Positions 23,246-33,533 of a DNA stretch of 64,000 nt are shown one piece after another. The number at the start of each line of letters is the position of its first letter. Positions within the stretch are counted from its first letter, which is position 1. This stretch comes from Variovorax paradoxus (GTDB taxonomy: Bacteria > Pseudomonadota > Gammaproteobacteria > Burkholderiales > Burkholderiaceae_C): positions 1,054,001-1,118,000 of the forward strand of contig CP063166.1 in NCBI GenBank assembly GCA_016806145.1. The letters run 5' to 3'. Both the position numbers and the translations under genes were made by a program. Under the pieces are notes generated by a model that saw only the letters and a list, made by a program, of their open reading frames with translations, had not been told where the DNA came from and searched no databases.

Positions 23246-23280
23246 CTGATCTATCTCCTCGTTGAAAAAATCGGGCAGCC

Positions 23281-23372
23281 GGACGCGAAGAACGCGAAGG
23301 TTTCGCGAAGGACGCGAAAGGAACATCCTTTTTCTTTTTTGCGTCCTTCGCGAAACCTTCGCGTCCTCTGCG
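23281..23372. repeat. Inverted repeat between dctM and dctP
   Basis: Positions 23293-23315 and 23341-23363 are perfect reverse complements (23 bp), extended imperfectly outward, around a short A/T-rich loop. The arms consist of GCGAAGG/TTCGCG-type units repeated in tandem. The sequence looks like a dispersed intergenic element. It could also stabilise or attenuate the TRAP mRNA between the permease and binding-protein genes. Confidence 0.8.
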
Positions 23373-23387
23373 TTCGGCTGTCCGCGT

Positions 23388-24686
23388 TCAATACCCCAGC
23401 TTCCTGGGCAGCCACAGCGCGAGTTCGGGGAAGGCGATCACCAGCACCATCACCACGAACATCGAGAACAGCATCCAGCCGACCCAGCGCACGGTCTCCT
23501 CCATGCGCACCTTGGCGATGCGGCACGACACCATCAGGTTGACGGCCAGCGGCGGCGTGAACTGGCCGAGCGCGACCTTGAGCGTGAGGATCACGCCGAA
23601 CCAGACCGGGTCCCACTTGTAGTACTGAACGATCGGCAGCAAGAGCGGCACGAAGATCAGGAAGATCGAGACACCGTCGAGGAACATGCCGACCGTGATG
23701 AGCAGCAGGATCAGCAGCGCGAGCACGCCGTATTCGCCCAGGCCCGAGTTGACGATGGCGCGCGTCACCGGATCGATCACGCCGAGCGTCGACAGCGAGT
23801 AGGCGAAGATGCCCGCGAGCGAGACCACCAGCAGGATCACCGCCGACAGTTCGCCCGATTCGCGCAGGATGACGAACAGGTCGCGGACCTTGATGGTGCG
23901 GTGGATGCACATGCCGACGAAGAGGCCGTAGAACACGGCGACCACGGCCGCCTCGGTGGGCGTGAACCAGCCCGCGCGCATGCCGCCGAGGATCAGCACC
24001 GGCGCCGCCAGGCCCCAGGTGGCTTCGCGGAAGCTCTTCCAGAACGGCGGGCGCGGCAGGGTGGATTCGAGCGCGCCCATCTTGTGCTTGCGCGCCAGCC
24101 ACACGGCCGGAATCATCAGCGCCAGGCCGGCCAGCACGCCGGGCACCATGCCGGCGGCGAACAGCGCCGGCACCGAGGCGCCGGGCACCAGCACCGAGTA
24201 GACGATGAAGGCCACCGAGGGCGGGATCAGGATGTCGGTGGCCGCGGCGGCGCCGACCACGCTGGCCGAGTAGGCGGCCGGATAGCCGGCGCGCGACATC
24301 GCGGCGATCATCACCGCGCCCACCGCGGCGGCATTGGCCGGGCCCGAGCCCGAGATGCCGCCGAGGAACATCGCGACCGCGATCGCCACCAGCGGCAGCA
24401 TGCCCGAGCCGCGGCCCACGATGGCGATGGCGAAGTTCACCAGCCGCAGCGCGACGCCCGAGCGGTCGAAGATCGAGCCGACCAGCACGAACATCGGAAT
24501 GGCGAGCAGCGGGTACTTGCCGAGGCCGGCGTAGAAGTTCTGCGGCACCGCGAGCAGGCCGAACCACTGGGCGTCGGTGTTGGCGAGCGCGATGCAGGCC
24601 GCGCCGGCGAGGCCGAGCGCCGCGCCGATGGGCACGCCCACCAGCATCATCAGCAGGAAGGCGACGAACAGGAGCGTGGCGATCAT
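23388..24686 (-). CDS. dctM: TRAP transporter large permease
   Basis: This 432-residue integral membrane protein is hydrophobic throughout, starting MIATLLFVAFLLMMLVGVPIG. It carries the DctM family motifs around LAIPMFVLVGSIFDRSG and GSGPANAAAVGAVMIAAMSR. It is the sodium- or proton-coupled transport subunit. The start at 24686 overlaps the dctQ stop by 4 bases (ATGA), which indicates translational coupling. Length is normal for the family. Confidence 0.92.
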   Translation of the reverse strand: MIATLLFVAFLLMMLVGVPIGAALGLAGAACIALANTDAQWFGLLAVPQNFYAGLGKYPLLAIPMFVLVGSIFDRSGVALRLVNFAIAIVGRGSGMLPLVAIAVAMFLGGISGSGPANAAAVGAVMIAAMSRAGYPAAYSASVVGAAAATDILIPPSVAFIVYSVLVPGASVPALFAAGMVPGVLAGLALMIPAVWLARKHKMGALESTLPRPPFWKSFREATWGLAAPVLILGGMRAGWFTPTEAAVVAVFYGLFVGMCIHRTIKVRDLFVILRESGELSAVILLVVSLAGIFAYSLSTLGVIDPVTRAIVNSGLGEYGVLALLILLLITVGMFLDGVSIFLIFVPLLLPIVQYYKWDPVWFGVILTLKVALGQFTPPLAVNLMVSCRIAKVRMEETVRWVGWMLFSMFVVMVLVIAFPELALWLPRKLGY

Positions 24687-25252
24687 TCGGCGGCGTCCTG
24701 CTGGTCGTTGTTCTTGTGCTTGCGGCCGCGCCGCACGAACAGCCCGATGGCGCGCAGCGCGATGGCCAGCGACACGATCGGCAGCCAGATCGAATACCAC
24801 CAGGCCGGCACCCCGATGCCCGGCGAGGTCTCCTCGAAGCGGTAGTCGTCCCAGACCATGCGCACGCTGAGCGCGGCGATCAGGCCGAACAGCGCGGCGA
24901 TCATCAGCGCGCCGAACTGCGCCAGCCGGCGGCGCCGGGCCATCGAGCCGCTCTCGGCGAAGTACTCGATGCGGATGTGGCGGTCGCGCGCGACCGCGGC
25001 CGAGCCGGCGACCAGCGCCAGCATGATCATCAGGAACACGGAGAACTCCTCGGTCCAGGCGAAGGAGGAGTCGGTGAAGTAGCGCACCAGGACGTTGGCG
25101 AAGGTGATGAGCGCGAGCGCGCCCATGATGAGCACGGTGAGCCAGTCCTCGATGCCCAGGGGCACCTTGGTGGGCTCGTCGGCGGCTTCGATGTCGGGGG
25201 GGAGGGGGCTGGCGGCGTCCAGCGTGGGGCCGGACTCAGGAGGAGTGGTCAT
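24683..25252 (-). CDS. dctQ: TRAP transporter small permease
   Basis: This 189-residue membrane protein has four predicted helices after a 35-residue hydrophilic N-terminus. The DctQ signature FAWTEEFSVFLMIMLALVAGSAAVARDRHIRIEYF spans helices two and three. It partners with DctM. It is the first gene of the operon, so the promoter must lie in 25253-25470. The C-terminal tail is Lys/Asn/Gln-rich. Confidence 0.88.
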   Translation of the reverse strand: MTTPPESGPTLDAASPLPPDIEAADEPTKVPLGIEDWLTVLIMGALALITFANVLVRYFTDSSFAWTEEFSVFLMIMLALVAGSAAVARDRHIRIEYFAESGSMARRRRLAQFGALMIAALFGLIAALSVRMVWDDYRFEETSPGIGVPAWWYSIWLPIVSLAIALRAIGLFVRRGRKHKNNDQQDAAE

Positions 25253-25730
25253 CGGAGAAAACGGGCAGCTGGGGCAGGCGCCATGTCACCGGGCGGTCGC
25301 CGGGACGCGATCCGTACACCTCGACAGGGAAGCAGCCGTCGATTCTGGGGCGTCAATGTCCACTGATATATCGGGGGTTTCCTTAGCTGTTGCCTGGGCT
25401 TTGGGGGCGCTGGAAGGGGTAGGTTTTCTGCGTTTTGGCGGCTATGGGCGGTTGCCTGGGGCGTCCGGGGCGTGCACAGGACACCGGGTGCTTCCCTCCG
25501 CGAATGTCCCCCGGCCTTCGGCCTCCTCCTTGATTTCGCTGCGGGAAGCACCCGGTGCCCTGTGCATGGTGAGTGCGGGGGTGAGATTGGGATAACTGCT
25601 GCGGCGAATTGCAGTTAGAGATGCGTGGGCGCGTTCATGTCAAACGCGGTTATTGCTATCGCTAGGAATGGTCGAGGGAACGCCTCACGTGAACGTTGGT
25701 CACGTACCATTTCCAGCAGGAGAGAAGACT
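25253..25730. other. Intergenic region between dctQ and the defence-like island
   Basis: No gene is supported in this 478-base stretch. It must carry the dctQMP promoter on the minus strand and the promoter of the OLD/UvrD pair on the plus strand. GC content falls visibly from about 25350 onward. A large hairpin repeat occupies 25473-25566. The Shine-Dalgarno AGGAG of the OLD gene lies at 25718-25722. Confidence 0.7.
25473..25566 (+). repeat. Dispersed repeat with 24-bp inverted arms, copy 1 (left of island)
   Basis: Arms 25473-25496 and 25543-25566 are inverted complements with one mismatch. They enclose a core (25496-25543) beginning CTCCGCGAATGTCCCCCGG. This 48-base core recurs in the opposite orientation at 30752-30799 with a single mismatch. 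The two copies bracket the OLD/UvrD island. Confidence 0.88.
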
Positions 25731-28040
25731 ATGCACATAGAGACCATCTGGATTCGCAACTTTCGGCGCATCAAGGACACTCGCATCGATCTTGCACCCG
25801 ACATATCGCTCTTTGTCGGCGCCAACAACAGTGGAAAGACTTCTGCCGCGCACGCCCTGCAGCTGTTCACCTCCGCGTCTAGAGATAGGTTCTCGCTTCA
25901 CGACTTCAGCTCGGAATGCTGGGACGCCATCAATGCCTACGGTGAGGGCGCCGAGGGCAGCGAGCTTCCGACCATCTCCATCGATATCTGGTTCACCGTG
26001 AATCCGGCGGACCTGCACCGCGTAGTGGATCTCCTGCCCAGCCTCGCTTGGCAGGGCAACCAAGTAGGGATCCGTGTCGAGCTAGCCCCGACGGATCCGG
26101 TAGCGTTGAGGTCCGCGTTCCAGGAGGCTCGCACGAGGGCCCGGCGCGCACGCGTGCAGCAAGAGGCACCGGACGGCCAAGTTGCTCAGGTCGTGGCCGG
26201 ATATGACCCGCAGCCGCGCACGCTCAGTGATTACCTAGCGGATGTCGCTGGCGACCGCGTCCGGCGGGACTTCGAGCTGCGCTACTACGTCCTCGACCGC
26301 GCTAAGTTCGACGATGTCCTGCAACCGGTCGAGGGGTATACCCCCCTGCGCTTGATGCCCGACAAGGGCCGCAGTGGCAAGGATGTTCTGACGAGCCTCG
26401 TTAAGGTGGACTTCCTCCATGCGCAGCGTCATCTGTCAGATGCCAATGGTGGAGCCCGGTCTGAGGACCTATCGCGCTGCCTAAGTCGCTTCTACGAGAG
26501 AAACCTCGAGAAACACGAAGAGGACCACGACGCCAGGCATGCGCTCGCACAGTCGGAGTCCTTGCTGAACGAGCATCTTGAGCGCGTCTTCGGCCCGACG
26601 CTCGAACGTTTGGCGCACCTCGGCTACCCAGGTGTCAACAATCCGCGCCTCCTGATCAAGACGGCCCTTAACCCGGCCACGATCCTCAGCAGCCATGAAG
26701 GTGCGCGTGTCCACTACGCGGTGGGAGCTGTGGGCGCGGAGTTGTCTGCGACCCTGCCGGACCGTTATAACGGCCTTGGCTTCAAGAACCTCATCTACAT
26801 GGTCGTTGAGCTGCTGGATGTACACGCCAGATGGCTTGACATCGAGGAGAACCGACCGCCGTTGCATCTCATCTTCATCGAGGAGCCGGAAGCGCACTTG
26901 CATGCCCAGTTGCAGCAGGTGTTCATCCGCAAGGTCTTGGACATCTTGACGGTCCCCGATGGGGACGCGCCGTACTGCACTAGCCAACTCGTCGTTTCGA
27001 CGCATTCGCCGCATGTACTGTTTGAACGCGGATTCCGGCCCATTCGTTATTTCCGTCGCACGGCGGACAGGGGCGTGCAGCGTTCCCAAGTGCTCAGCAT
27101 GGCCAAGTTCTACGAGACGGCCAACGATCCGGCGGATCCCGCCGACCGCACCAGGGATTTTCTGGAGCGGTACTTGAGGCTCACGCACTGCGACATCTTC
27201 TTCGCCGACGCCGCCATCCTAGTGGAGGGGAACGTCGAGCGGCTGCTGATGCCGCAGATGATCGCCAAGGTTGCGCCGCGCTTGCAGTCCAATTACGTCA
27301 GCATTTTGGAGATCGGCGGGGCGTTCGGGCATCGCTTCAAGGGACTGATTGAGTTCCTCGGCTTAACTTCCCTGATCGTGACGGACATTGACAGTGTTTT
27401 GCCACCAGTCGCCGATGTGGCTGGTGACGAAGCGGTGCTGCACGACGAGGACGACGCCGACGCGGATCCGGATGCCGACGAAGATGCCGAGGAGGCGGCT
27501 GCGGCGCGGCGCGGGCGTCAGGCTTGCATGGTCCACGAGAACGGGGCACTCACGTCGAACCAGACGCTGGTCAAGTGGCTTCCCGCATGCAGCACCATTG
27601 CCGAGTTGCTGGCGGCCACACCAGAACAACGCACCCAAGCACGAGCAGCGCCGGGCGGCGCGCATGTGCGGGTTTCGTACCAGACGCAGGTGGACGTGAG
27701 TTGGCGCGGCATGACGGAGGTCAGAGTAGGTCGAACTCTGGAGGAGGCGTTCGCGCTGCAGAACCTCGCTTGGTGCCAGGATGTCGATCGCAAGGATCTT
27801 GGTCTACGCATCAAGGGCTGCAACAAGCTGGGCGTCGGGGAACTGGCCGAGAGCCTGTACCGCAAGGTCAAGAAGGCGAGCTTTCACAAGACCGACTTTG
27901 CGTTGGCGCTACTGGCACAGGATCCGGCAGCGTGGACGGTACCGCACTACATCCAAGACGGACTGCGCTGGCTTGAGGAACAGGTCGCTCCACCTCCGCC
28001 GGCCGCGGCACTCGTACAACTCCCGGACGTTGCAGTATGA
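25731..28040 (+). CDS. OLD-family ATPase with TOPRIM nuclease domain (GajA-like, Gabija/class 2 OLD)
   Basis: This 769-residue protein starts at the ATG behind AGGAG (25718-25722). The N-terminal ABC-type ATPase has Walker A GANNSGKTS at residues 30-38. An EEPEAHLHAQ block follows with Glu384-Glu385, then the H-loop STHSPHV around 423-429. The C-terminal TOPRIM domain has LVEGNVERL with Glu499 and the metal-binding Asp552-x-Asp554 in VTDIDSV. Later come the family motif GRTLEEAFALQN and a Lys in KTDFALALL. An acidic stretch (about 567-590) interrupts the TOPRIM region. Class 2 OLD nucleases are defined by an adjacent UvrD-like gene, present here with a 4-base overlap, and this pair is the anti-phage system Gabija. 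The protein is longer than B. cereus GajA (578 residues). Codon use is visibly less GC-rich than in the neighbours. Confidence 0.85.
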   Translation: MHIETIWIRNFRRIKDTRIDLAPDISLFVGANNSGKTSAAHALQLFTSASRDRFSLHDFSSECWDAINAYGEGAEGSELPTISIDIWFTVNPADLHRVVDLLPSLAWQGNQVGIRVELAPTDPVALRSAFQEARTRARRARVQQEAPDGQVAQVVAGYDPQPRTLSDYLADVAGDRVRRDFELRYYVLDRAKFDDVLQPVEGYTPLRLMPDKGRSGKDVLTSLVKVDFLHAQRHLSDANGGARSEDLSRCLSRFYERNLEKHEEDHDARHALAQSESLLNEHLERVFGPTLERLAHLGYPGVNNPRLLIKTALNPATILSSHEGARVHYAVGAVGAELSATLPDRYNGLGFKNLIYMVVELLDVHARWLDIEENRPPLHLIFIEEPEAHLHAQLQQVFIRKVLDILTVPDGDAPYCTSQLVVSTHSPHVLFERGFRPIRYFRRTADRGVQRSQVLSMAKFYETANDPADPADRTRDFLERYLRLTHCDIFFADAAILVEGNVERLLMPQMIAKVAPRLQSNYVSILEIGGAFGHRFKGLIEFLGLTSLIVTDIDSVLPPVADVAGDEAVLHDEDDADADPDADEDAEEAAAARRGRQACMVHENGALTSNQTLVKWLPACSTIAELLAATPEQRTQARAAPGGAHVRVSYQTQVDVSWRGMTEVRVGRTLEEAFALQNLAWCQDVDRKDLGLRIKGCNKLGVGELAESLYRKVKKASFHKTDFALALLAQDPAAWTVPHYIQDGLRWLEEQVAPPPPAAALVQLPDVAV

Positions 28041-29938
28041 CGCGTCGCGTTGGACAACCAGATACTCAGGCAGACTTGGAACTGCGCGCGTGCCTCGATG
28101 AGCGGCCCCAGAGAAGCTTTGTCATGGTCGCTGGCGCGGGTTCTGGCAAGACGACTTCGCTGGTGAAGGCGCTGGCGCACATTGCGCAGACGCGGCGACG
28201 GGATCTTCACACTCGCGGACAGCGCATTGCTTGCATCACATACACCGAGATAGCGGTCAATGAGATCTGGGGTGATGTGGGGAACGATCCGCTGTTCCAT
28301 GTTTCGACGATTCACAGCTTCCTGTGGACGGTAGTGCGTCCGTTCCAGATTAATCTGAAAGCCTGGGTGATCGCCCGGGTCCAGGAAAAGATTAACGAGG
28401 CTCAGGCGCACCATGACAGGCCGAGAACTCGCCAGGCAACACGCGAGCGTTTGGTGGCCGATATCGCCCGGTATCACCAGCAGCTCTTGGATCTAGAACA
28501 GCGGGCCCATTTCAGCTATGGAGCGGGCAGTGACTTGGGCAGGGGTGTCCTTGGTCATTCCGACGTCATCACCGCAGCGGTGGACCTGATCGACCAAAGT
28601 CAGTTGCTTCGCGATGTCGTCGCGAGCCGGTATCCGGTGGTGTTTATCGACGAAAGCCAAGACACCCGACCCGAGATCGTCGCGGCGTTCCGCAGCATCG
28701 CCGAGACCACGCCCGTGCAGTTTTGCCTGGGATTCTTCGGGGACCCGATGCAAAAAATCTACACGGATGGCGCCGGCGCTATCGAGGTGCCGGAGGGTTG
28801 GAGGCTCATCGCCAAGCCGGAGAACTTCAGGTGTCCGCAGCGGGTCCTGCGCGTCGTGAATGCGGTCCGCCATCCGGGGGATGGCTTGGTTCAGACGCGC
28901 GGTCGGATGGCTTGGGCCGACGACGTGCTGGTTCCGGTTGAAGGCTCGGCCAGAGTTTTCCTGCTTGCGGCCGACCAACTCCGGTCGGCAAAGCTCGGTA
29001 AGGTTCGTGAGTGGCTTAGACGCACCAACCAGGATGATCATTGGGTGAGTGAGGATCGCGCGGCCGATGTCCGGGTCTTGGTGGTTGTGCACCGCATGGC
29101 GGCAACACGGCTGGGTTTCCCGAACTTGTACTCAGCCTTGAACGACAACGCTCCTTCCAGTATCAAGGAGGGCCTCAAGGACGGAAGCTCTTGGCCGCTT
29201 CGGGTATTCCTGACGTACTTGGTTCCCTTGGCTATGGCAGTGGATGAGGACCGCGCGTTCGACGTAATGAGCCTGCTGCGTGGCCAGTGTCCGCTGTTGG
29301 CACCCGCACGACTGGGAGGCGAAGGCGCCAACGTGACTCTAGCCACGCTGCAGGCTTCCACCAACGAGCTCGCACGGCGCATGCGTTCAAACGATACATC
29401 GCTTCGGGACATACTCCTTTTCGCGGCCGAAGCTGAGATGCTGCAACTCGACGAAGCGTGGTCCAGGCATCTCGCGGCCGAAGGAGGAGAGGCTATAGAC
29501 GGCGAAGATCCAGAGGCTGTGTCCGTGTCTGCGTTCCTGGACTGCCGCGTTGCCGAGTTGAAGGGCTACCGTCATTACCTGGAAGATCTATCCCCGTTCG
29601 CGACCCAGCAGGGTGTGAAAGGCGCTGAGTTCGAGCGCGTGGTGGTCCTGATTGACGACGAGGAGGGGCAAAATCAGCGGCAGTTTTCCTACGGAAAGTA
29701 TTTCGGTATGGCTCCGTTGTCGGAAACGGACCAAGAGAACATCGCAGCTGGCGAAGACAACGTCATAGACCGCACCCGGCGCCTGTTCTATGTGTGCTGC
29801 TCACGCGCAACGCGCGATCTTGCAGTTGTCATGTTCGTGCCCGACGTTGCCGCCGCCCGTGCGCGGGTCGAGGCGGCCGGCATCTTTCCGCCAGAGGACA
29901 TCATCGATGAGGGGACTCTGGAAGCGATGCTCGCATGA
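28037..29938 (+). CDS. UvrD/PcrA-like superfamily 1 helicase (GajB-like)
   Basis: This 633-residue helicase overlaps the OLD gene by ATGA. Motif I is AGAGSGKTT at 32-40, and motif Ia is CITYTEIAVNEI. Motif II is DESQD at 205-209, motif III is GFFGDPMQKIY, and motif IV is NFRCPQRVLRVVN. Motif V is QGVKGAEFERVVVL and motif VI is RRLFYVCCSRATRDL. All are intact, so it should be an active DNA translocase. In Gabija the helicase partner GajB acts with the OLD nuclease GajA in sensing and degrading phage or cellular DNA. It is larger than the B. cereus GajB (494 residues). The same lower-GC composition as the OLD gene supports transfer as a unit. Confidence 0.85.
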   Translation: MTRRVGQPDTQADLELRACLDERPQRSFVMVAGAGSGKTTSLVKALAHIAQTRRRDLHTRGQRIACITYTEIAVNEIWGDVGNDPLFHVSTIHSFLWTVVRPFQINLKAWVIARVQEKINEAQAHHDRPRTRQATRERLVADIARYHQQLLDLEQRAHFSYGAGSDLGRGVLGHSDVITAAVDLIDQSQLLRDVVASRYPVVFIDESQDTRPEIVAAFRSIAETTPVQFCLGFFGDPMQKIYTDGAGAIEVPEGWRLIAKPENFRCPQRVLRVVNAVRHPGDGLVQTRGRMAWADDVLVPVEGSARVFLLAADQLRSAKLGKVREWLRRTNQDDHWVSEDRAADVRVLVVVHRMAATRLGFPNLYSALNDNAPSSIKEGLKDGSSWPLRVFLTYLVPLAMAVDEDRAFDVMSLLRGQCPLLAPARLGGEGANVTLATLQASTNELARRMRSNDTSLRDILLFAAEAEMLQLDEAWSRHLAAEGGEAIDGEDPEAVSVSAFLDCRVAELKGYRHYLEDLSPFATQQGVKGAEFERVVVLIDDEEGQNQRQFSYGKYFGMAPLSETDQENIAAGEDNVIDRTRRLFYVCCSRATRDLAVVMFVPDVAAARARVEAAGIFPPEDIIDEGTLEAMLA

Positions 29939-30104
29939 GGTAGGTTGAGCCGCCGGAGTGCCTAGAGAGGCTTGGGGCCATTTTCGTTCTACCCCGCAAA
30001 CCTCAACCGAACCGAATTCCCTCATCTCGAAGGCTTTAGCCATCGTTCCCCAAAGGGCCTGTCCCTCAAGCGGGCCGCGAACCCCGCAGCCCGCAGACCA
30101 GCCC

Positions 30105-30374
30105 CTACCCGCCAGCCTCAAGCCCCCCATATCGCGTCATCTCGCTCATCTGATACAACTCCCCCGCCTCGCGCGCGAGTCCAGCCGCAAGCCAGAGCAG
30201 GTTGTCCAGTTGTCGAGGTCCGTCGCCGCTGCACCAATCGATGTCTTTCCCGTGGCAGACCCACAGAAGCGCTTCGAGCTGGGAGAGGGTGTTTTCGAGG
30301 AGATCCGCCGGGCCTTGGGCGTTGTCTCCGGAAGCTACCGGCGTGCGACGCCGGGCTATAGTCTTGGTAGCCAT
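30105..30374 (-). CDS. Hypothetical 89-residue protein beside the defence pair
   Basis: A short open frame on the opposite strand has a good Shine-Dalgarno (AAAGGA, about 10 bases before the ATG at 30374). The protein begins with a basic stretch (ATKTIARRRTP) and then is mostly helical. It contains LLENTLSQLEALLWVCHGKDIDWC, then LDNLLWLAAGLAREAGELY, and two cysteines. I do not recognise the family; its size and composition resemble small phage- or plasmid-associated proteins. It is convergent with the helicase. It might be an accessory or unrelated cargo gene of the island. Confidence 0.5.
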   Translation of the reverse strand: MATKTIARRRTPVASGDNAQGPADLLENTLSQLEALLWVCHGKDIDWCSGDGPRQLDNLLWLAAGLAREAGELYQMSEMTRYGGLEAGG

Positions 30375-30850
30375 TTTTGTGCGTCCTTTCGAGGGTTGTG
30401 CACGAACTTGGTTAGACGGCTGGGGTGCTCGCTACATCCTGGCCGTCGCCTTTTGATACCTCGCATCTGCATCGCTGCTTTCGCACCGACAACCTGCCGC
30501 GAGGCAAGCAGCCTTCGAACATCTCAATACTGATTGGGTGTGTCGCGCCTTTCTTCTCCCCTAGTTGGGGTATCGAGTGAGAGGGGCATTCACTCTAGAG
30601 AAGAAGCCGGCAGGTTGCCGTGCCGTTCGGCACGAAGTCGAGGCAATCGCGACTAAATGCAGCTTCCGCGATGCGCTGCGCGCGAGCCGCTCGGGACCTG
30701 TGTCGTGTCGGCCCGCAGCGGCTCCAACGATCACGTCGATGGGGTGCCTTGCGCAGCGAAATCAAGGAGGAGGCCGCAGGCCGGGGGACATTCGCGGAGC
30801 AAGGTGCCCCGTCGGCGTGATCGCCCCCGGACGCGAACGAACAAAAAGAC
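30375..30850. other. Intergenic region right of the island
   Basis: No supported gene. It has mixed composition, lower in GC than the core genome. It contains two short hairpins (CCCC-TAGTT-GGGG near 30558-30571, and GAGTGA/TCACTC at 30575-30595). The second copy of the 48-base repeat lies at 30741-30810. The 89-residue gene's promoter should be within 30375-30500. Confidence 0.6.
30741..30810 (-). repeat. Dispersed repeat, copy 2 (right of island, inverted)
   Basis: The core 30752-30799 is the reverse complement of 25496-25543 with one mismatch (AGGCCGCAGGCC against AGGCCGAAGGCC). Short flanking arms (GGGGTGCC/GGTGCCCC type) pair less perfectly than in copy 1. It lies 41 bases beyond the 3' end of the nitronate monooxygenase gene. 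Confidence 0.88.

Positions 30851-33533
<2,683 letters not shown>

What the first reader, a model, noticed from the sequence alone, without database searches (positions are those of the whole stretch)
25731..29938. Gabija-like anti-phage pair, longer than the type system
An OLD ATPase-TOPRIM protein (769 residues) and a UvrD-like helicase (633 residues) overlap by ATGA. All key motifs are intact: Walker A, EEPEAH, STHSPH, LVEGN, DID, and helicase I to VI. This is the class 2 OLD/Gabija arrangement, but both proteins are markedly longer than B. cereus GajA/GajB. It may be a divergent subtype with additional domains.
Basis: partly seen in the sequence, partly recalled or inferred. Interest (0 to 1): 0.72.

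Follow-up and report, generated by a model that had tools for sequence, protein, structure and literature searches.

The report
Gabija defence pair in hairpin cassette
The two genes are an ordinary, probably working member of the known Gabija anti-phage system, and they sit between two DNA hairpins at a spot where some related bacteria carry other defence genes instead.

Summary
In detail: 25731-28040 and 28037-29938 encode an intact OLD ATPase-TOPRIM protein (769 aa) and a UvrD-like helicase (633 aa), matching PADLOC GajA (E 1.1e-271) and GajB (6.8e-239) over nearly full length. The size is not special: those models are 752 and 632 positions long, long relatives are widespread, and the pair falls in a large, well-supported clade. 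An acidic loop after the catalytic DxD marks the pair's closer relatives.

The surprise is around the genes. The genome is Variovorax-like. gajA-gajB and an 89-aa gene lie between the two halves of a 200-250-bp paired-hairpin repeat, of which 28 close, cargo-free pairs lie elsewhere on the chromosome. Of 19 congeners with the same flanking genes, five have neither hairpins nor cargo, and four carry PD-Lambda-5, Lamassu plus DRT8, a caspase system or a lone OLD gene instead. The 89-aa gene is multicopy in the genus (32 of 101 genomes); OLD-TOPRIM genes lie within 5 kb of a copy in 8 of 21 cases (0.15 expected under uniform placement). The Gabija is a new member; its carrier may be a new kind of swappable defence cassette.

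The parts
25731..28040 (+). gajA, OLD-family ABC ATPase + TOPRIM nuclease, 769 aa
   Evidence: PADLOC GajA E 1.1e-271; Pfam AAA_15 and OLD-like_TOPRIM
28037..29938 (+). gajB, UvrD-like SF1 helicase, 633 aa, ATGA overlap with gajA
   Evidence: PADLOC GajB E 6.8e-239; UvrD-helicase Pfam
25718..25724 (+). AGGAGAG, probable ribosome binding site of gajA
   Evidence: sequence printed; assignment is inference
25818..25841 (+). GajA Walker A (residues 30-37)
27225..27227 (+). GajA Glu499, aligned with the EG motif of B. cereus GajA
   Evidence: the paper names E379 there (passage)
27384..27392 (+). GajA D552-I-D554, TOPRIM DxD
27399..27551 (+). acidic loop after DxD (residues 557-607; 16 D/E, 3 K/R)
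28649..28654 (+). GajB Asp205-Glu206, helicase motif II
25467..25570 (.). left hairpin of a paired-hairpin repeat
   Evidence: folds at -36.2 kcal/mol, z -6.4; repeated on the chromosome
29989..30832 (.). right module shared by many cargo-bearing loci of congeners; holds the 89-aa gene and the right hairpin
30105..30374 (-). 89-aa gene, multicopy in the genus, no Pfam match
30728..30832 (.). right hairpin, inverted with respect to the left one
   Evidence: folds at -33.8 kcal/mol, z -4.4; inverted repeat I1
24683..25252 (-). left flank gene dctQ (TRAP transporter)
   Evidence: Pfam DctQ; match in 53 of 61 genus genomes
30851..31822 (-). right flank gene, nitronate monooxygenase (NMO)
   Evidence: Pfam NMO

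Best explanation
A complete Gabija anti-phage operon of the long-GajA clade, acquired horizontally by a Variovorax-like bacterium and carried as cargo between two hairpins at an exchange site between dctQ and a nitronate monooxygenase gene. By homology, GajA assembles through its OLD ATPase region and cuts DNA with its TOPRIM site (E499, D552, D554); GajB, an SF1 helicase, docks on it. The complex would attack linear phage DNA whose ends are not handled by host RecBCD and so block circularisation or replication. Shown here: gene integrity, conserved catalytic motifs, selection, family and clade, cargo exchange at the site, hairpin brackets. Inferred from published Gabija work: assembly, DNA cleavage, trigger and protection. 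Unknown: what moves the cargo and what the 89-aa gene does.
For: PADLOC and Pfam. Motifs and alignment to solved GajA and GajB. A GajB-like match beside GajA in 34 of 35 related loci; the one without (L018) runs off its contig. GajA tree: 38-row clade with the window against a 15-row clade with the B. cereus-type row, support 100/99; the GajB tree keeps the long-clade rows together, 100/98. Purifying selection. Exchange site. Hairpin pairs.
Against: No phage test and no structure model. In 3 of the 35 loci GajB is broken (457, 317 and 85 aa) and in two GajA is short (462 and 385 aa). In 8 of 13 sites with 2-10 kb between dctQ and NMO the ORFs scanned gave no PADLOC match, so the site is not only for defence; two of these (G540, G538) and G591 show no backbone to speak of. 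The association test uses a uniform null.
Confidence: 0.85

Rival explanations
1. A new, divergent Gabija subtype with added domains and a different activity.
For: Only weak single-sequence matches to solved B. cereus GajA (E about 1e-7, 578-residue chain), about 190 residues shorter than this protein; a long acidic loop in 31 of 51 aligned rows.
Against: Nearly full-length match to existing GajA models of 752 and 736 positions; thousands of relatives; no extra Pfam domain; tree.
Confidence: 0.1
2. A housekeeping or class 1 OLD nuclease with a chance helicase neighbour, not a defence system.
For: Some OLD-family proteins act alone or have other roles (abstract beginnings in the listing).
Against: GajB-like partner in 34 of 35 relatives; patchy presence, 6 of 101 genus genomes at E <= 1e-40 including this one; foreign composition; other defence systems at the same site.
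Confidence: 0.04
3. The hairpins and the 89-aa gene are bystanders: the site is an ordinary defence hotspot and cargo changes by homologous recombination between flanking core genes.
For: No transposase in the unit; the only Y1 transposase hit of the genome is more than 140 kb from the nearest listed hairpin; core flanks are conserved; of 12 congeners with 2-10 kb at the site, 7 have both cargo boundaries in place and 5 do not; of 20 other copies of the 89-aa gene, 9 show no left hairpin module beyond the cargo in the stretch fetched.
Against: In those 7 the cargo starts and ends at nearly the same two points (25578-25631 and 29989-30082); the same backbone occurs at other sites with other flanks; OLD or RT genes near the 89-aa gene lie on its 3' side in 13 of 14 cases.
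Confidence: 0.45

Closest known systems
Gabija of Bacillus cereus VD045 (GajA/GajB)
   Same: Two-gene make-up, ATPase and TOPRIM motifs, helicase motifs
   Different: Longer proteins, above all between Walker A and EEPE; other side of a deep split, judged by the B. cereus-type row L134
Gabija of Pseudomonas aeruginosa PA14 (preprint PMC12407980; abstract, outline, sections 5, 16, 35 and passages seen)
   Same: Two-gene system in a proteobacterium, on an acquired element
   Different: Its protein lengths and clade were not established here. A 738-aa P. aeruginosa relative at 63% identity exists
BpOLD and XccOLD class 2 TOPRIM domains
   Same: Class 2 OLD (match of the A1 profile)
   Different: Much closer to a 593-aa GajA of the other clade (E 1e-87 and 1e-102)
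Core defence hotspots cDHS1/cDHS2 of P. aeruginosa (PMC10250203; abstract and outline seen)
   Same: Variable defence cargo at a fixed place among core genes
   Different: Here a shared backbone of paired hairpins and an 89-aa gene recurs at several sites of the genus
REPIN / paired REP hairpins (recalled)
   Same: Two inverted hairpins a short way apart, in many copies, stems covarying
   Different: No Y1 transposase nearby; one pair holds a 5.2-kb cargo

Membership tests
Gabija (class 2 OLD) | GajA with OLD-type ABC ATPase and C-terminal TOPRIM | tested here: met
Gabija (class 2 OLD) | Complete TOPRIM site: Glu, DxD, conserved Gly | tested here: met
   E499, D552, D554 and G530 invariant in 51 rows; EG and DxD aligned to B. 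cereus GajA
[quoted passage not shown]
Gabija (class 2 OLD) | Groups with helicase-partnered GajAs in a tree | tested here: met
   the only outgroup row, L119, is a very long branch, so the root is unsure
Gabija (class 2 OLD) | Helical insert in the TOPRIM domain; 4:4 assembly | not testable with these tools
Gabija (class 2 OLD) | Phage protection needing both genes | not testable with these tools
   bench test
Defence hotspot | Same core flanks; different defence systems or nothing in relatives | tested here: met
REPIN/RAYT element | Paired inverted hairpins in many copies | tested here: met
REPIN/RAYT element | A RAYT (Y1) gene beside the repeats | tested here: not met
   one Y1_Tnp hit in the genome, at C1:1513505, far from the listed hairpins
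Autonomous transposon or integrative element | Own transposase or integrase in the unit | tested here: not met
   only gajA, gajB and the 89-aa gene are coding-like ORFs of 80 aa or more between the flanking genes; the last has no Pfam match

The most novel reading that the evidence does not exclude
The paired hairpins are the ends of a new family of transposase-less, multi-site defence cassettes in Variovorax: an empty 200-250-bp pair, or a loaded form with a fixed cargo slot next to an 89-aa gene that takes part in moving or keeping the cargo. Gabija is one of many interchangeable loads. On the protein side, the acidic loop after DxD would act as a DNA mimic that holds the nuclease off until DNA ends arrive.
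Probability: 0.3. Interest if true: 0.75.

Novelty: new variant of a known kind. Interest (0 to 1): 0.5.

Why it matters
As a Gabija the pair adds little: a member of a clade for which the PDB searches showed no close full-length structure. The carrier matters more. If a hairpin pair and an 89-aa marker gene define where Variovorax keeps swappable immunity, they give a direct way to list its defence genes and find new ones (some cargo matches only candidate families; other cargo ORFs match nothing in PADLOC), and they pose a testable question: how defence cargo moves without an enzyme of its own.

Tried and rejected
Rejected: 'longer means new subtype'. Not supported: a RAYT as the mover of the hairpins. 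Gabija relatives do occur on plasmids (355 records, all below 60% identity) and in 5 phage records (below 60%), none in the viral collection. The 89-aa gene had no match in the plasmid and phage collections; hairpin-like stretches occur on three Variovorax records of the plasmid collection; no exact hairpin 19-mer in viral contigs; no Rfam match in 25200-31000. No target-site duplication could be read at the empty site; flanks are too diverged. Whether PA14 Gabija is of the long clade could not be settled.

Literature: searches. No listed title or abstract start was about a Variovorax defence hotspot or hairpin-bounded defence cassettes, but only 10 of 99 papers, 12 of 14, 10 of 142, 10 of 17 and 10 of 124 were listed. 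PMC10568477, PMC8565338 and PMC12629846 were seen as passages only.

Weak points. The idea that the 89-aa gene marks defence cargo came from noticing copies near GajA/OLD hits in G615, G527 and the own C2; without these, the window and G550, the OLD count is 3 of 16, still above the 0.15 expected for all 21. The co-localisation test assumes uniform placement, while accessory regions cluster, so its probabilities are too small; it used 150 copies from a list that cut. The 20 copies fetched were chosen, not random (five, L150, L154, L157, L163, L164, were known to lie near OLD or RT hits). Of 126 ORFs predicted there, 39 were scanned, leaving out the GajA/OLD ORFs of L154, L157 and L163; that scan tells families, not which ORF, except for the first member. 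Hairpin counts are of matches listed.

Full report
1. What is there. Two ORFs without stops at 25731-28040 and 28037-29938 encode 769 and 633 residues. Pfam gives AAA_15 plus OLD-like TOPRIM for the first and UvrD helicase for the second. PADLOC gives GajA PDLC00095 at E 1.1e-271 (residues 1-755 on 1-736 of 752) and GajB PDLC00143 at E 6.8e-239 (1-624 on 1-629 of 632).

2. Family membership. The profile of 51 GajA rows finds B. cereus GajA as its best solved match and aligns its EG and DxD with E499 and D552/D554; the residues E379, D432, D434 and G409 are named in PMC10781630 (passages). The profile of 43 GajB rows finds UvrD/Rep/PcrA helicases and B. cereus GajB. In genome contigs 35 relatives were confirmed: GajA of over 690 aa in 32 of 35; a GajB-like match in 34 of 35, complete (over 580 aa) in 30 of 35. 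In 397 Pseudomonadota genomes, 29 including this one have a GajA match at E <= 1e-20; of 29 loci fetched from the other 28, 25 have a GajB-like match. The protein search scored 7518 relatives and listed 120: this protein and 119 others, 60-82% identical and 708-851 aa long.

3. Is it a new subtype? The tree of 53 rows has one deep, well-supported split (100/99): 38 rows with the window, 15 with the B. cereus-type and Xcc/Bp-type proteins (the links of L134 to BcGajA and of L067 to the Xcc/Bp domains are). The lone OLD row L119 (573 aa) falls among the 38 on a very long branch, its place unsure. Without it lengths are 647-783 aa on the long side and 585-738 on the other, so length alone does not separate them. 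Motif spacing: Walker A to EEPE is 353 residues in the window, 251-283 in 11 of the 15 short-side rows, 316-322 in three, not measured in one. DxD to the end is 219 in the window, 140-159 in six short-side rows, about 194-236 in others (two readings there are misplaced patterns). E to DxD is 55 in the window and in the B. cereus-type row. The stretch from DxD to N610 is 38-72 residues, mostly acidic, in 31 of 51 rows of A1 (the window, its 27 database relatives, L007, L008, L009) and 20-33 in the other 20. So it is a known long form with a loop typical of its closer relatives. In the GajB tree the long-clade rows stay together (100/98), while forks among the few short-side rows are partly weak.

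4. How it likely works. Inferred from published Gabija: a 4:4 GajA-GajB complex that degrades phage DNA (PMC10781630, passages) and, in PA14, a non-abortive system that targets DNA not acted on by RecBCD and blocks circularisation (PMC12407980, abstract and sections). Nothing in the sequence speaks against this: active sites intact, dN far below dS.

5. Surroundings. The pair has low third-position GC. On one side lies dctQ-dctM-dctP, on the other a nitronate monooxygenase (NMO) and ETF genes. The best named relative of that NMO (95%) and most named rows are Variovorax, others Polaromonas or Ramlibacter, so the genus is taken as Variovorax. The genome has 9.44 Mb in 3 contigs.

6. An exchange site. 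Among 61 genus genomes the window's and 19 others have dctQ and the close NMO on one contig within 11 kb. The space between them is at most 316 bp in 6 (G122, G587, G555, G537, G553, G577), about 1 kb in 1 (G551), and 2.1-10.3 kb in 12 plus the window. All 19 were fetched, plus G581, which has dctQ only. BLAST of the window against them: of the 12, 7 (G593, G566, G583, G550, G571, G580, G527) share the left flank up to 25578-25631 and the right one from 29989-30082 with unrelated DNA between; G572 has only the right, G578 only the left module; G591, G540 and G538 have little or nothing of either. Cargo with PADLOC matches: PD-Lambda-5 A and B (2e-164, 1.6e-117; G593), Lamassu LmuA/LmuB and DRT8 (1.2e-80, 1.6e-161, 1.5e-148; G572), a caspase protein matching PDC-S65 (3.1e-44) beside a STAND-like one (G583), a lone OLD protein (2.7e-26; G550). 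With the window that is 5 of 13 sites; in the other 8 (G591, G566, G578, G571, G580, G540, G538, G527) the ORFs scanned gave no PADLOC match, and Pfam gave, among others, transposase, regulator, hydrolase, MFS or monooxygenase genes. Not every ORF was scanned.

7. The brackets. Two inverted hairpins flank the cargo (25467-25570 and 30728-30832). The same sequences are scattered over contig C1: 45 hits of a 19-mer, all on C1. Of 64 hairpin segments (63 listed plus the window's right one), 56 form 28 close pairs of 202-254 bp, the window's two lie apart (19-mers 5.28 kb apart) and 6 are solitary. All 10 close pairs fetched consist of a left-type and a right-type hairpin about 42-51 bp apart. Among 22 aligned hairpins, 12 of 30 predicted pairs show compensatory changes. 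So gajAB and the 89-aa gene occupy the middle of such a pair. Of the six narrow sites five show no hairpin; G122 has one.

8. The 89-aa gene (30105-30374, minus). It is found in 9 of the 19 dctQ-NMO loci (the G571 copy has a stop inside), has dN/dS of about 0.18-0.34 against six of them and no Pfam match. In 101 genus genomes, 32 have a match at E <= 1e-10, up to 10 each. OLD-TOPRIM places in copy-bearing genomes: 8 of 21 within 5 kb of a copy, 0.15 expected under uniform placement, 7 of 8 on its 3' side; reverse transcriptase places: 6 of 46, 0.31 expected, 6 of 6 on the 3' side. Leaving out the window, G550 and G572, known before, leaves 6 of 19 and 5 of 45; leaving out also the three that gave the idea leaves 3 of 16 OLD places. 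Around 20 chosen copies, at least 600 bp of the right module match in 19 and 165 bp in L157; a left module lies beyond the cargo in 11 of 20. By outer flank these 20 fall into the dctQ-NMO site (6), two further recurrent sites (5 and 4) and five single ones. The two other close copies in this genome, on C2, show no hairpins. PADLOC on 39 of the 126 ORFs there matched, among others, type I restriction (L166), Septu PtuA and PtuB, PrrC, RT_VI and candidate families PDC-M49A, S46, S05, S18.

9. Judgement. As a Gabija: a new member of a known kind. As a locus: a defence hotspot of a form that I did not see in the partial listings. The brackets and the marker gene are facts of sequence; that they move the cargo is a hypothesis.

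Noticed in passing
own genome C2:1866586 (L150:249-2288): A second OLD-like TOPRIM gene (680-aa ORF) with a 407-aa ORF behind it, 3.2 kb from another copy of the 89-aa gene, on its 5' side and without hairpins.
   Followed up: partly
window 30105-30374: The 89-aa gene is a multicopy, conserved gene of unknown function in part of Variovorax.
   Followed up: partly
L114, L117: A DUF1993 protein is encoded in both loci at the dctQ-NMO site; ORFs of 191 aa lie also in L116, L120, L121 and L150, not checked by Pfam.
   Followed up: no
L138 (Pseudomonas phage PfAC02b): A filamentous phage record carries an annotated GajA/GajB pair of a more distant branch.
   Followed up: no
window 23272-23384: A 48-bp inverted repeat, 88% complementary, between dctP and dctM.
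   Followed up: no
L029, L030, L040: GajB is broken beside GajA in these three relatives; GajA itself is short in L040.
   Followed up: no
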